Shown here piece by piece: positions 6,220-10,071 of a stretch of DNA of 64,000 bases (its first letter is position 1; the number at the start of each line of letters is the position of its first letter). The stretch is from Xanthomonas translucens pv. cerealis (GTDB taxonomy: Bacteria; Pseudomonadota; Gammaproteobacteria; Xanthomonadales; Xanthomonadaceae), in assembly GCF_006838285.1 (NCBI RefSeq), contig NZ_CP038228.1, forward strand, positions 3,410,001 through 3,474,000, given 5' to 3'. The notes under the pieces were generated by a model, which worked only from the letters and a program-made list of their open reading frames with translations, was not told the origin of the DNA and searched no databases. A program made the position numbers and the translations under genes.

Positions 6220-6656
6220 AACTGCGGCTGCAGATGGTGCCGGCACTGGACACGCTGGCGCAGCTGAGCGACACGCTGGAGGCCGCGCTGCTGCGCCACG
6301 GCGTGGTCCTGGATCACGTGAACCGGGCGCGGCTGATCGTGGAGGAACTGGCCTGCAACACGCTTGAGCACGGCCACCTGAGCAGCGAACAGCCGCCGGT
6401 GGAAGTGCTGTTGCAGGTGGACAGCGGCGCGCTGGTGCTGGAATTCCACGACAGCGGCCCGGCCTTCGACCTGCGCGCGGCGCCGGCGCCGGATCTGGAC
6501 GCGGACATCGCGCAGCGCCCGATCGGCGGCCTCGGCCTGCACCTGGTGCGGCAGTTCGCCGACCACATCGATTACCGTCACGATGCCGGCCGCAACGTCG
6601 TGCGCATTACCCTGCTGCATCCCTTCGACCCCATCCCCCAGGAGTTCACCGCATGA
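6216..6656 (+). CDS. Anti-sigma-type serine kinase (RsbW/SpoIIAB-like HATPase)
   Basis: A 146-residue GHKL ATPase of the anti-sigma-factor kinase type. Visible ATP-site motifs are the N box EELACNTLEHG (about 45-55), a G1-like box with DSGPAFD, and a G2-like box GGLGLHLV. Kinases of this family phosphorylate a STAS antagonist and sequester a partner protein; here the partner is not encoded next door. The gene overlaps both neighbours by four bases (ATGA at each junction), which strongly supports one translationally coupled operon. RsbW-like is the closest description; no orthology with the Bacillus protein is claimed. Confidence 0.87.
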   Translation: MKLRLQMVPALDTLAQLSDTLEAALLRHGVVLDHVNRARLIVEELACNTLEHGHLSSEQPPVEVLLQVDSGALVLEFHDSGPAFDLRAAPAPDLDADIAQRPIGGLGLHLVRQFADHIDYRHDAGRNVVRITLLHPFDPIPQEFTA

Positions 6657-7039
6657 GCACGTTGAGCCTGCAGATCGACCCCACGCAGGACCGGCGCCAG
6701 CGCATCACCCTCAGCGGGCGCCTGGACACGCATACCTACCAGGCCCTGGACGAGGCGCTGGGGCCGTTGCTGGCCACGCAGATCACCACCCTGGTGCTGG
6801 ACCTGTCGAACCTGGACTACATCAGCAGCGCCGGCATCCGCTCGATCTTCAAGGCGCGCAAGGTGCTGGCTACGCGCGAGGGCCGGGTGCTGGTGGTCAA
6901 CCCGCAGCCGCAGATCCGCAAGGTGTTCGACGTGGTCAAGGCGGTGCCGTTGAACGAGATCTTCACCTCGGTGCAGGAACTGGACGACTACCTGGACGAG
7001 ATGCAGCGGCGGGTGCTGGAGGACGGCGACGGCGGCTGA
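6653..7039 (+). CDS. STAS-domain anti-sigma factor antagonist
   Basis: A 128-residue single STAS domain. The signature LDLSNLDYISSAGIRSI contains the serine pair normally phosphorylated by the cognate kinase (SSAG). In the expected switch the unphosphorylated form binds the kinase at 6216-6656 and frees its partner, and the phosphatase at 4261-6219 reactivates it. It is the last gene of the operon, overlapping the kinase stop. There is no sigma factor in the visible neighbourhood, so the output could be an unlinked sigma factor or some other protein. Confidence 0.9.
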   Translation: MSTLSLQIDPTQDRRQRITLSGRLDTHTYQALDEALGPLLATQITTLVLDLSNLDYISSAGIRSIFKARKVLATREGRVLVVNPQPQIRKVFDVVKAVPLNEIFTSVQELDDYLDEMQRRVLEDGDGG

Positions 7040-7219: not shown

Positions 7220-7235
7220 TGTGATTTTCATCACA
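7220..7235. promoter_or_regulatory. Clp/CRP-type operator upstream of the RiPP locus
   Basis: The sequence TGTGA-TTTTCA-TCACA is a perfect match to the CRP consensus, which the Xanthomonas regulator Clp also recognises. Its centre at 7227.5 lies about 41.5 bases before a start site near 7269 implied by a TATAGA -10 candidate at 7257-7262. That is class II activator geometry. The operator match is observed; the promoter and start site are inferred. Confidence 0.75.
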
Positions 7236-7302
7236 AAAATAGCATGATTTGTATTTTATAGATTTGCTCACCCCTCGACGGATCTCGACAGGCTGCTTGC
7301 AC

Positions 7303-7572
7303 ATGGATAAGGCATTTCACCAGATCGATCCCCGCGGCATCACCCTGAACCCGGACGGATCGCTCAACTTCGCCAACCATCGATTGCGCGCTGCGGCGAT
7401 CGCTTCAGCGACAGCCGGGGCCATCCGCCCCATGAGCGAAAATGCCGGAACGTGCACCAACTCCGGCACCTGCTCTTCCACGAATTACACCTGCAACAAC
7501 ACCGGCGACTGCTCCAAGGCGTCCAATGTCGGCGCTTGTAGAGCCGGCGGCCAGCCTTCGCCGAACGGTTGA
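7303..7572 (+). CDS. Cys-rich RiPP precursor peptide 1 (candidate)
   Basis: An 89-residue peptide with a polar N-terminal part and a small-residue, Cys-rich C-terminal part. The five cysteines all lie in the last 41 residues, spaced C-x5-C-x6-C-x5-C-x8-C. Two intervals, CTNSGTC and CNNTGDC, follow C-x-N-x3-C. The leader shares IDP, a Gly-containing turn, F, H and AAAI in order with the peptide at 8576-8833, so the two are paralogues. A radical SAM gene follows after nine bases. I infer a ribosomally made, post-translationally modified peptide; no known RiPP class is recognised. The ATG at 7303 is chosen because the homologous leader begins there; no strong ribosome-binding site is visible. 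Confidence 0.72.
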   Translation: MDKAFHQIDPRGITLNPDGSLNFANHRLRAAAIASATAGAIRPMSENAGTCTNSGTCSSTNYTCNNTGDCSKASNVGACRAGGQPSPNG

Positions 7573-7581
7573 GACAGCACG

Positions 7582-8565
7582 ATGCTGAGCGAATCCACCA
7601 TCGCCGAAGCGCTTTCTCCGCGCATCCTGTCCCTCATCCTGCTGCCGACCGAAAAATGCAATTTCCGCTGCACCTATTGCTATGAAGACTTTGCAATAGG
7701 ACGTATGCAACCGAGCGTGGTCCGCGGCATCAAGGCGTTGATCACTCATCGCGTCCCTCACCTGGATCGGCTCAACATCTCCTGGTTCGGGGGGGAACCA
7801 CTCCTGGCGCGTGATGTTGTCCTGGATATCGGTCAACACGCAAACGCAGTGTGCGCACAACACGGCGTTGCGTTCAGCGCCGGCTTTACCACCAATGGCT
7901 ACCTGCTCGAGCCGGCTCTGCTGCAGAGGTTTACTGAGCTGCAGCACCGCGAGTTCCAGATCACGCTGGACGGTGACGCGCAATGGCACGACAAGACACG
8001 GATCACCGCCAACAAAGGCGCCACGTTCGAGAAACTATGGTCGAACCTCATCGCCTACCGGTCGCTATCGGCAAATTTCGCTATCTCGCTGCGGCTGCAC
8101 CTGCATCAGGACAACATCGAATCTGTACGGCGCCTGTATTCCAGCCTGCATCGCGAGCTATTGAGCGACCCACGGTTTTCTGTTTACTTCCACAAGGTTT
8201 CCAATCTGAGCGCGGGCGGCACGATCGGGGAAAAGATATTGCCGCGCGACCGCTACCTTGAAGCGATCGCCTACATCACTTCGTGCGTCGATTGCTGCAA
8301 AAACGACGAACGCCCAATGTCGGAAGAGCATCTGGATGGATATATCTGCTATGCGGCAAAACCGAACTCGCTGATGATCCGTGCCAATGGCAAGATCGGC
8401 AAATGCACGGTTGCACTGAACGATGATCGCAACGACCTCGGACAACTCCACGCCGACGGCACCATCGACATCGAAAACGACAAGCTGCGTCGCTGGATGA
8501 GCGGATTTTCCGACCTATCCGAACGCACGCTCGGCTGTCCGCTTTCCACCTTGGCCAGCACGTGA
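7582..8565 (+). CDS. Radical SAM peptide maturase with SPASM/twitch-like C-terminus
   Basis: A 327-residue radical SAM enzyme. The cluster motif CNFRCTYC (about 30-37) is the canonical CxxxCxxC for the SAM-binding 4Fe-4S cluster, followed by a glycine-rich WFGGEP. The C-terminal third has C-x13-G-x4-C (ICYAAKPNS to GKC), exactly the opening of a SPASM or twitch domain, and later GCP near the end, plus an extra CVDCC. The domain is shorter than a full seven-cysteine SPASM, which fits a twitch type. Position between two Cys-rich peptides suggests it installs a thioether or other carbon-centred crosslink in them; that chemistry is inference. GC is lower than flanking core genes. Confidence 0.88.
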   Translation: MLSESTIAEALSPRILSLILLPTEKCNFRCTYCYEDFAIGRMQPSVVRGIKALITHRVPHLDRLNISWFGGEPLLARDVVLDIGQHANAVCAQHGVAFSAGFTTNGYLLEPALLQRFTELQHREFQITLDGDAQWHDKTRITANKGATFEKLWSNLIAYRSLSANFAISLRLHLHQDNIESVRRLYSSLHRELLSDPRFSVYFHKVSNLSAGGTIGEKILPRDRYLEAIAYITSCVDCCKNDERPMSEEHLDGYICYAAKPNSLMIRANGKIGKCTVALNDDRNDLGQLHADGTIDIENDKLRRWMSGFSDLSERTLGCPLSTLAST

Positions 8566-8575
8566 GATACGTCCC

Positions 8576-8833
8576 ATGCCAATCCGCATAGATCCGGACA
8601 AGATCTCAATAGGCAAGCATGGAGACGTGCTGTTCGATGGATCACACCCATCCAGCGCTGCCGCCATCGAAGCACTGGCAGCACGGCGCTTCGGTACGCT
8701 CGCCACCAATGAGGTCTGCAACGGTACAAATCCCGCATGCACCAATACGAAAGACTGCTCATTGGGCAGCAATACCAACTGCAATAACAAAGGCTCCTGC
8801 TTCACTCCCAACCCTGGCCCTGGCCAGGGCTGA
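8576..8833 (+). CDS. Cys-rich RiPP precursor peptide 2 (candidate)
   Basis: An 85-residue paralogue of the peptide at 7303-7572, starting ten bases after the radical SAM stop. Its five cysteines are spaced C-x6-C-x5-C-x7-C-x5-C, and again two intervals, CTNTKDC and CNNKGSC, fit C-x-N-x3-C. The tail is rich in Pro and Gly (PNPGPGQG). The leader contains IDP near residue 5, an HG turn, F, an H and AAAI, matching peptide 1 in order. A conserved leader with a variable Cys-rich core is the usual design of peptides modified by a shared enzyme. Function is unknown. Confidence 0.7.
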   Translation: MPIRIDPDKISIGKHGDVLFDGSHPSSAAAIEALAARRFGTLATNEVCNGTNPACTNTKDCSLGSNTNCNNKGSCFTPNPGPGQG

Positions 8834-8857
8834 CGCGCAAACTCCAGGTGGATCGCC

Positions 8858-9304
8858 ATGACAACCCATACGAACGACAGCCGCCGTCACTTCCTGCTCG
8901 GCACCGCTGCCACCGCAATCGCGGCGATTGTCCCTGCCGCGGCTGCGGCGACCGCGGCCACCGATGCCAGAGCGACACAGGCGGCGGCGCCTCTCGGTCG
9001 CGCCCTCCCCGAAACGCAGACCTTCGCCGTGCAGGTGCTCGGCGACCTACGGCAGCTGTCGACCGACCTGCAGCTGATTCCCGGGCAGCTCTCCGAGCCG
9101 CTCGCGCTCAAGGGCAACGGCACCTACCGGGTGAAGATCAGCCCCACCGACATCAGCACGCGCTTCGGGCCGATCTACCGGCTGACCCTCGCCGACGCGC
9201 AGGGCATGCCGCTGGAAGAGATGAACATCGGCAGCGACACCACCGCCACCTTTACCCGCTACGGCGTGCAGGTCTACGCACTGTCGATCGAACAGGCGAT
9301 GTAA
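8858..9304 (+). CDS. Tat-exported hypothetical protein of the RiPP locus
   Basis: A 148-residue protein with a twin-arginine signal: SRRHFLLG near residues 9-16, then an Ala-rich hydrophobic stretch to about residue 38. The mature part of about 110 residues looks mainly beta-stranded and has no cysteine. I do not recognise a family. It follows peptide 2 by 24 bases with an AGGTGG ribosome-binding site, so it is probably in the same operon. GC is higher than in the three preceding genes. It might act on, carry, or be a target of the peptides in the periplasm; none of these is shown by the sequence. Confidence 0.75.
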   Translation: MTTHTNDSRRHFLLGTAATAIAAIVPAAAAATAATDARATQAAAPLGRALPETQTFAVQVLGDLRQLSTDLQLIPGQLSEPLALKGNGTYRVKISPTDISTRFGPIYRLTLADAQGMPLEEMNIGSDTTATFTRYGVQVYALSIEQAM

Positions 9305-9432: not shown

Positions 9433-10071
9433 TTACTTCGCCTCCTGCAGCGCCTCGGTGGTGATGCGGATCCTGACCTCGTCACTGACGTTCGGCACGT
9501 ATGCGGCCAAGCCGAAATCGCTGCGCTTGATCGTGGTGGTGGCGTCGAAGCCCAGCGCCGGCACCTTCTTCATCGGGTGCGGACCGGCGCCGTTGAGGGT
9601 CACCGCCAGCACCACCGGTTTGGTCGTGCCCTTGATGGTCAGGTCGCCGGCCACGCTCAGCTTGTTGGCGCCGGCGGCGGTCACCTTGGTGCTCTTGAAG
9701 GTGGCGGTCGGGAACTTGGCGGCGTCGAAGAAGTCGGCGCTCTTCAGGTGTTCGTCGAACTTGGCGGTGAAGCTGTTGAGGCCGGACAGCGGCAGGGTCA
9801 CCTGGACGCTGGACTTGGCCACGTTCTCGGCGTTGTAGACCAGGGTGCCGTCGACGTCGCCGAAGTGCGCGCTGGGGTTGGAGAAGCCGAGGTGGCTCCA
9901 CTGCACCAGCACGTCGGTGTGCGCCGGGTCCAGCTTGTAGGTGCCGGTGGTGCCCTTGATTGCGGCGGCGGCAGCGGCGGCCGGCGCGGCGAAGGCGCTG
10001 GTCGCGGGCTGGGCAACGACGACGGCCAGGGCCAGAGCGAGCGGGAGCAGCAGTTTGCGGGTCTTGTTCAT
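9433..10071 (-). CDS. yceI: YceI-family periplasmic lipocalin-like protein
   Basis: A 212-residue YceI-domain protein. A signal peptide (KTRKLLLPLALALAVVVA to about residue 29) directs export to the periplasm. The mature domain starts near YKLDPAHTDVLVQWSHLGFS and contains the typical HLKSADFFDAAKFPTATF segment. Proteins of this family form an extended beta barrel that binds polyprenoid-like lipids; the biological role is poorly defined. It is 91 bases downstream of the nitroreductase gene on the same strand and could be cotranscribed with it. Confidence 0.9.
   Translation of the reverse strand: MNKTRKLLLPLALALAVVVAQPATSAFAAPAAAAAAAIKGTTGTYKLDPAHTDVLVQWSHLGFSNPSAHFGDVDGTLVYNAENVAKSSVQVTLPLSGLNSFTAKFDEHLKSADFFDAAKFPTATFKSTKVTAAGANKLSVAGDLTIKGTTKPVVLAVTLNGAGPHPMKKVPALGFDATTTIKRSDFGLAAYVPNVSDEVRIRITTEALQEAK

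What the first reader, a model, noticed from the sequence alone, without database searches (positions are those of the whole stretch)
7220..9304. Candidate new RiPP locus: two five-Cys peptides with repeated C-x-N-x3-C units flank a radical SAM/twitch enzyme
Seen: two small genes (7303-7572 and 8576-8833) encode peptides with aligned leaders and five C-terminal cysteines each. In both, two Cys-Cys intervals fit C-x-N-x3-C (CTNSGTC, CNNTGDC; CTNTKDC, CNNKGSC). Between them is a radical SAM enzyme with CNFRCTYC and C-x13-G-x4-C. Known: such enzymes make sactipeptide, ranthipeptide and cyclophane crosslinks. The motif matches none of the classes I know (SCIFF, CXXX-repeat, Xye/GRRM). Inference: a new class where Asn or its neighbour is joined to Cys.
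Basis: partly seen in the sequence, partly recalled or inferred. Interest (0 to 1): 0.85.

Follow-up and report, generated by a model that had tools for sequence, protein, structure and literature searches.

The report
Asparagine-cysteine crosslinked peptide gene cassette
A small Xanthomonas gene cassette makes two peptides in which every cysteine sits three or four residues after an asparagine, next to a radical enzyme that most likely staples the two together; the same spelling rule recurs beside related enzymes in several bacterial phyla and on phage contigs, so it looks like an undescribed branch of the thioether-peptide natural products.

Summary
In detail: two five-Cys peptides (7303-7572, 8576-8833) flank a 327-aa radical SAM/twitch enzyme (7582-8565) in a tight operon with a Tat-signal protein (8858-9304). 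The motif needs rewriting: the unit is not C-x-N-x3-C but N-x(2,3)-C, Asn three or four residues BEFORE each Cys. All ten Cys of the two peptides obey. In a supported clade of 19 enzyme loci (Xanthomonas, Rhodanobacteraceae, Caulobacter, Massilia, a planctomycete, phage contigs), 127 of 132 Cys in 25 non-redundant cores obey, against 36.7 +/- 4.6 in shuffles. Direction: the last Cys has Asn at +2 in 2 of the 51 cores that reach that far. Best explanation: an RRE-less thioether synthase joins each Cys to the upstream Asn (probably at C-beta), giving up to five side-by-side rings per peptide. Nearest proven chemistry: streptococcal NxxcA/NxxcB (one Asn-x2-Cys beta-thioether) and freyrasin (six Cys-x3-Asp rings). 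No listed NCBIfam model reaches its cut-off for the 11 enzymes scanned. I file it as a new variant of a known kind; the bond itself is unproven. Some relatives carry a C39 exporter next door, so the product is probably secreted there; the Xanthomonas cassette has none.

The parts
7220..7235 (+). CRP-like palindrome TGTGATTTTCATCACA, 83 bp from its first base to the PrecA start codon
   Evidence: Only exact TGTGA-N6-TCACA in the window, 0.01 expected in shuffles. In 7 Xanthomonas relatives: exact at 83 bp in one, 1 mismatch in three (83, 83, 94 bp), 2 mismatches in two (83, 86 bp), none with up to 2 mismatches in G017. Matches with up to 2 mismatches are common by chance (10 in the 64-kb window)
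7303..7572 (+). Precursor peptide A (89 aa): leader QIDPRGITLNPDGSLNF..., core of five N-x(2,3)-C units
   Evidence: purifying selection
7441..7539 (+). PrecA core: proposed rings N47-C51, N53-C57, N61-C64, N66-C70, N75-C79
   Evidence: sequence; the five Asn and five Cys are invariant in the 7 Xanthomonas sequences aligned (window included), while neighbouring Asn65 is Thr in one
7582..8565 (+). Radical SAM/twitch enzyme (327 aa), no domain before the barrel
   Evidence: PF04055; six invariant Cys in the 50 aligned sequences; AlphaFold model pLDDT 90.7, closest folds CteB, anSME, ChlB
7657..7680 (+). CNFRCTYC, radical SAM cluster motif (Cys26, 30, 33)
8347..8538 (+). Twitch domain with invariant Cys256, Cys275, Cys319 (proposed three ligands of one auxiliary cluster)
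   Evidence: invariant in 50 of 50 rows
8576..8833 (+). Precursor peptide B (85 aa): leader RIDPDKISIGKHGDVLF..., core of five N-x(2,3)-C units
8708..8800 (+). PrecB core: proposed rings N45-C48, N52-C55, N57-C61, N66-C69, N71-C75
   Evidence: sequence; in one of 7 aligned orthologs the third Cys is Tyr
8858..9304 (+). Tat-signal protein (148 aa), all-beta mature part, function unknown
   Evidence: TAT_signal 18.8 bits, below its cut-off 22.7; present in exactly the 9 of 20 Xanthomonas genomes that hold the enzyme or its remnant; homologs beside the enzyme in L016, L018, L019; model, no confident fold match

Best explanation
The cassette makes poly-thioether RiPPs. The twitch radical SAM enzyme recognises the shared leader (IDPxxIsLxxdGxV...) without an RRE domain, makes a 5'-deoxyadenosyl radical, takes a hydrogen from the side chain (most likely C-beta) of an Asn, and joins that carbon to the sulfur of the Cys three or four residues downstream, which is probably held on the three-Cys auxiliary cluster. 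It repeats this along the chain, closing up to five small, consecutive, non-nested rings per peptide (about -2 Da each, -10 Da in all). Shown: the genes, the N-x(2,3)-C rule, its direction, its tie to this enzyme family, purifying selection. Inferred: the bond, its carbon, the cluster's role, leader recognition, and secretion.
For: Rule: 127 of 132 Cys in 25 de-duplicated cores of the 19-locus clade have Asn at -3/-4 (157 of 162 in 31 cores before de-duplication), shuffles 36.7 +/- 4.6, maximum 54 in 5000 shuffles; assigned units overlap in 0 of 102 neighbouring pairs (two of the cores, L061 and L096, were added by hand). Wider set chosen by a leader model only: 181 of 225 vs 52.1 +/- 5.8; cores whose leader was not a seed: 84 of 109 vs 22.2 +/- 4.0. 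Direction: first Cys has Asn at -3/-4 in 44 of 63, last Cys has Asn at +2 in 2 of 51 with a residue there. Specificity: 51 ORFs in the fetched loci obey the rule at 80% or more (of 2168 with at least four Cys); by the coordinates listed, all lie on the enzyme's strand (five near-duplicate locus pairs included). In PrecA orthologs the -3/-4 Asn are invariant. Clade of 19 enzymes, support 99/95, all with multi-Cys precursors. Nearest NCBIfam models are TIGR04463, Clo7bot, PapB and CefB, ahead of RumMC, the sactisynthase in the list (first ones also); nearest folds include CteB, a ranthipeptide synthase. Precedent: NxxcB joins Cys23 to Asn20 C-beta, freyrasin has six Cys-Asp C-beta rings (PMC8326336, passages).
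Against: No mass spectrum, no reconstitution. Five of 132 Cys in the clade lack Asn at -3/-4. In cores with fewer than four Cys only 44 of 78 obey, and 6 of 64 leader-positive loci have none, so the wider family does something looser. 29 of 93 loci had no leader hit; a second round found visible candidates in some of these and nothing convincing in others. X. sp. GPE 39 gave no PrecB hit and one species has Tyr for the third PrecB Cys. In the clade the L061 enzyme holds a stop and the L019 enzyme is cut by the contig start. Sequence cannot tell C-alpha from C-beta.
Confidence: 0.66

Rival explanations
1. The bond is a sactionine: Cys sulfur to the C-alpha of the Asn or of its neighbour, as in classical sactipeptides.
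Confidence: 0.16
2. The enzyme modifies the Asn (or residues between) without joining them to Cys, and the Cys form disulfides or bind metal.
Against: Asn and Cys are spaced one to one, 0 of 102 neighbouring units overlapping, which a free Asn modification does not require; six invariant Cys suit a thiolate-binding auxiliary cluster (inference).
Confidence: 0.12
3. One reading: Cys joined to the Asn two residues downstream, or C-x-N-x3-C as one module.
For: 69 of 212 Cys with a residue at +2 have Asn there.
Against: Last Cys has Asn at +2 in 2 of 51 cores that reach that far while 48 of 63 have it at -3/-4; 54 of 69 C-x-N are followed by the expected downstream Cys.
Confidence: 0.03
4. The peptides are unmodified Cys/Asn-rich structural repeats and the enzyme acts on something else.
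For: No exporter in the Xanthomonas cassette; low-complexity Asn/Thr/Ser/Gly cores.
Against: 51 of 51 rule-obeying ORFs lie on the enzyme's strand; a leader pattern is shared across phyla while cores vary; 19 of 19 clade loci pair enzyme and peptide.
Confidence: 0.03

Closest known systems
NxxcA/NxxcB (streptococcal NxxC ranthipeptide)
   Same: Radical SAM enzyme; Asn upstream acceptor, Cys downstream donor; Asn20-x2-Cys23 (PMC8326336, passage)
   Different: One ring, against four to eleven Cys per core here; spacing here 2 or 3; Rgg/SHP quorum-sensing context there (PMC13361665, passages). NxxcB's sequence was not compared here.
Freyrasin / PapB (NF047865)
   Same: Six small thioether rings by one enzyme; PapB is among the closest models
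   Different: Cys first then Asp (C-x3-D), opposite order; 94.1 bits vs cut-off 340
TIGR04463 family (radical SAM vs C-rich peptide)
   Same: Closest NCBIfam model for all 11 members scanned (124-159 bits)
   Different: Cut-off 525 not reached by any; our proteins align from profile position 76-83 of 438, so lack its N-terminal part
CteB / SCIFF (thermocellin)
   Different: CteB residues before about 90 have no counterpart; SCIFF maturase model 51.8 vs 425 bits; full SPASM there (recalled), twitch here
ChlB (cyclophane synthase, leader complex 9gm3)
   Different: Cyclophane chemistry (title of its paper, seen in the reference list of PMC12636437); our units rarely carry an aromatic residue at a fixed place

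Membership tests
Ranthipeptide | Cys-rich precursor beside a radical SAM enzyme with auxiliary cluster domain | tested here: met
   the auxiliary cluster is inferred from three invariant Cys
Ranthipeptide | Sulfur joined to a non-alpha carbon | not testable with these tools
   needs MS/MS and NMR
NxxC (NxxcA/NxxcB) | Asn-x2-Cys motif, Asn upstream | tested here: met
   Both spacings occur: only -3 in 91, only -4 in 78, both in 12 of 225 Cys
NxxC (NxxcA/NxxcB) | Enzyme homologous to NxxcB as a subfamily | not tested
   NxxcB's sequence was not fetched
PapB family NF047865 | Curated score 340 bits | tested here: not met
   94.1 bits; at most 108.2 in the 8 of 10 relatives for which it was listed
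TIGR04463 | Curated score 525 bits | tested here: not met
   140.8 bits; 124.1-159.3 in 10 relatives
SCIFF (TIGR03974) | Curated score 425 bits | tested here: not met
   51.8 bits
CXXX-repeat (TIGR04115) | Curated score 350 bits | tested here: not met
   36.4 bits
Three-residue cyclophane peptides (Xye, GRRM, Fxs; motif recalled) | Aromatic residue two before the acceptor in each unit | tested here: not met
   2 of 127 N-x(2,3)-C units in the clade's 25 cores have W, F, Y or H two before the Asn; 22 of 127 hold one inside
RRE-dependent radical SAM RiPP systems | RRE fused to the N-terminus of the enzyme | tested here: not met
   First barrel strand begins at residue 15; CteB 1-89 unmatched
RRE-dependent radical SAM RiPP systems | Separate RRE protein nearby | tested here: inconclusive
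   None recognised by Pfam among the cassette and neighbouring proteins scanned; no RRE profile was run
Sactipeptide | C-alpha thioether | not testable with these tools
   needs MS/MS and NMR

The most novel reading that the evidence does not exclude
A separate, undescribed class of RRE-independent RiPPs spelled N-x(2,3)-C: one twitch enzyme stitches each Cys to the Asn before it, making a chain of thioether beads (four to eleven Cys per core), under purifying selection in Xanthomonas rather than toxin-like diversification, found in Pseudomonadota, a planctomycete and phage contigs, with the looser, shorter N-x2-C or N-x3-C peptides of Pseudoalteromonas, Nostoc, Flavobacteriaceae, Bacillota and Actinomycetota as its wider superfamily.
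Probability: 0.4. Interest if true: 0.76.

Novelty: new variant of a known kind. Interest (0 to 1): 0.62.

Why it matters
It turns a vague 'Cys-rich peptide next to a radical SAM enzyme' into a one-line substrate code that predicts which residues are joined, in which direction and how many times. The search for the enzyme returned 4160 proteins at E <= 1e-20 among the 7999 candidates scored (capped, and not every one need belong to this family), so the family is large. If right, one co-expression experiment would annotate much of it and supply an RRE-free catalyst for multi-ring Asn-Cys stapling. Its place on phage contigs and the Tat-protein partner raise a testable question about a role outside antibiosis.

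Tried and rejected

Literature: searches listed no paper whose title or shown abstract describes this family or an N-x3-C or multi-unit N-x2-C radical SAM peptide; only open-licence PMC papers are held, so subscription papers may describe it. Passages only (no paper in full) were read of PMC8326336, PMC13361665, PMC9413430, PMC11002830, PMC12636437, PMC12710340 and PMC6430473. Caruso 2019 (NxxcB) and the ChlB paper were seen only as cited there.

Dropped before counts: L001 and L002 (own genome), L003, L005, L008 (duplicates of L013-L015), L011/L012 (decayed G002 copy), viral loci L099 and L101-L163. In the 93 loci L093 and L094 carry identical peptides. Seeds of the leader model were picked partly from ORFs filtered for C-x-N or N-x-x-C, hence the separate count for non-seed cores; that set still holds two Xanthomonas orthologs (L004, L006). 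The tree used 72 of the 93 enzymes; labels for L022, L061 and L096 were set by hand.

Full report
What is there. The window lies at 3410001-3474000 of a single-contig 4.62-Mb genome that is a Xanthomonas by its named homologs; the species is not given. Four genes run on the + strand between a STAS-domain gene (6653-7039) and a convergent YceI gene (9433-10071): PrecA (7303-7572), a 327-aa radical SAM enzyme (7582-8565), PrecB (8576-8833) and a 148-aa Tat-signal protein (8858-9304). The gaps are 9, 10 and 24 nt. The enzyme, or its remnant, is in 9 of 20 genomes of the genus; the Tat-signal protein is in exactly the same nine, and the STAS gene is in all 20. In the 8 cassette-bearing stretches compared (8 of the 9 genomes), PrecA, enzyme (lacking its middle in one) and Tat gene are in all and PrecB in 7.

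The motif. I built a model of the leaders alone and used it to pick precursors near the enzyme in 93 loci; 64 had a hit, 80 precursors in all. Across 63 de-duplicated cores, Asn is at -3 in 103 and at -4 in 90 of 225 Cys, and at one or other in 181; shuffling the non-Cys residues within each core gives 52.1 +/- 5.8. Among cores whose leader was not a seed it is 84 of 109 against 22.2 +/- 4.0. Cores with four or more Cys obey in 137 of 147 Cys, those with fewer in 44 of 78. The Asn belongs to the Cys downstream: the first Cys has it at -3/-4 in 44 of 63 cores and the last in 48 of 63, whereas the last Cys has Asn at +2 in only 2 of the 51 cores that reach that far. Both window peptides obey at all five Cys. 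In the seven Xanthomonas PrecA sequences aligned the five partner Asn and five Cys are invariant, while the Asn next to one of them (position 65) is Thr in one species.

The enzyme clade. In a tree of 72 of the 93 enzymes, 19 form a group with support 99/95, all with multi-Cys precursors: the window and four other Xanthomonas rows, Dokdonella, Luteimonas, Fulvimonas, Luteibacter, a planctomycete, a gammaproteobacterial MAG, two Caulobacterales, Massilia, two further beta-proteobacterial genomes and three viral contigs. I delimited this clade after seeing the labels (four or more Cys), but the label did not use Asn. Over the whole tree the multi-Cys label needs 7 changes, against 18.2 in shuffles, so it is clustered but not confined to one clade. 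In the 31 cores of these 19 loci 157 of 162 Cys obey the rule; after de-duplication 127 of 132 in 25 cores, shuffles 36.7 +/- 4.6, maximum 54 in 5000; assigned units overlap in 0 of 102 neighbouring pairs. Outside the clade cores are mostly shorter, often with N-x2-C (Pseudoalteromonas, Alishewanella, Nostoc, Flavobacteriaceae) or N-x3-C (Planomonospora), and 29 of the 93 loci had no leader hit; a second, looser round showed plausible peptides in some of these and nothing in others.

The enzyme. Six Cys are invariant in the 50 aligned sequences: 26, 30, 33 (radical SAM cluster) and 256, 275, 319. Pfam finds Radical_SAM and, at E <= 1, no SPASM model. The AlphaFold model (pLDDT 90.7) is closest, within 1 Z, to CteB (23.8), anSME (23.6) and ChlB (22.9); SuiB follows at 19.6 and SkfB at 18.4. 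The first barrel strand starts at residue 15, so no RRE is fused to it. NCBIfam puts TIGR04463 first (140.8 bits, cut-off 525), then Clo7bot, PapB and CefB; none of 11 family members scanned reaches a cut-off among the models listed (best 25 of 67 for the window enzyme; those with E <= 1e-25 for ten relatives). Three invariant twitch Cys would leave one auxiliary-cluster iron free to hold a substrate thiolate, as I recall being reported for CteB; this is inference.

How it most likely works. The enzyme binds the leader, abstracts a hydrogen from the Asn side chain and couples it to the sulfur of the Cys 3-4 residues on, unit after unit. Precedents: NxxcB makes an Asn20 C-beta to Cys23 sulfur bond; freyrasin has six Cys-Asp C-beta rings; CteB and QhpD also make non-alpha thioethers (PMC8326336, PMC9413430, PMC11002830, passages read). 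PapB accepts 0-6 residues between its partners (PMC9413430 abstract), so two spacings for one enzyme are plausible. The predicted product of each window peptide is 10 Da lighter than the gene product.

Regulation and export. The only exact TGTGA-N6-TCACA in the window lies at 7220-7235 just before PrecA; 0.01 are expected by chance. In seven Xanthomonas relatives a match at 83-94 bp before PrecA is exact in one, has one mismatch in three and two in two, and is missing in G017; two-mismatch matches alone mean little, as 10 matches with up to two mismatches occur in the 64-kb window. The CRP-like regulator Clp of Xanthomonas, a c-di-GMP receptor (title in the reference list of PMC6430473), binds a site containing TGTGATCGGT in one promoter (PMC6430473, passage), so Clp control is a fair guess. 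C39-peptidase ABC exporters lie beside the enzyme in L021, L027, L033, L041 and L096 (Pfam); L042 and L061 group with them by BLAST only, and L028 and L093 have MacB/FtsX permeases; this is out of 17 loci (16 of the clade and L018), some cut short by contig ends, and 8 of the 17 show neither. By eye, most of the C39 loci have Gly-Gly before the core, which Xanthomonas lacks. The window genome has six C39 places, none in the window.

Novelty. What it works like: ranthipeptide chemistry with Asn, known once to me for a single Asn-x2-Cys ring. What is new: the multi-unit N-x(2,3)-C code, the RRE-free twitch enzyme family tied to it, its spread, and its place on phage contigs. I found no description in the searches named under Tried and rejected; of the four PrecA homologs found, two carry a name, 'hypothetical protein'. 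So: new variant of a known kind, with a 0.4 chance that it deserves class rank.

Noticed in passing
L094 (IMGVR_UViG_3300002741_000002), L095, L096: The cassette sits in phage surroundings: L094 and L095 beside tail proteins of PHROG 52 (L094 also a phage primase and a PHROG 603 transcriptional regulator; P2-like by eye), L096 (192-kb contig) beside phage primase, helicase and ribonucleotide reductase and with its own C39 exporter. A RiPP as phage cargo is worth its own study.
   Followed up: partly
8858-9304: Tat-signal protein that co-occurs 9 of 9 with the enzyme or its remnant in Xanthomonas; all-beta mature domain without a confident structural match. A Tat-like N-terminus (RRNLLK) also follows the enzyme in phage-borne L095, by eye.
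   Followed up: partly
L181 (G002) and L018: The enzyme lacks its middle (about residues 63-248) in G002 and holds an early stop in X. arboricola pv. populi, while both precursors and the Tat gene remain.
   Followed up: partly
L041 8001-12931; L036 7724-10790; L061 9210-9617: Arrays of several different precursors behind one enzyme (Massilia; a groundwater gammaproteobacterium), and one L061 peptide with 11 Cys, 10 of which obey the rule.
   Followed up: no
plasmid records H3-H12: Wider-family enzymes (32-42% identity) on 10 plasmids of Streptomyces, Deinococcus, Sinorhizobium, Acetobacter and Bradyrhizobium, 6 of 10 predicted conjugative. Two annotated-phage records, from human faeces, hold distant relatives.
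   Followed up: no
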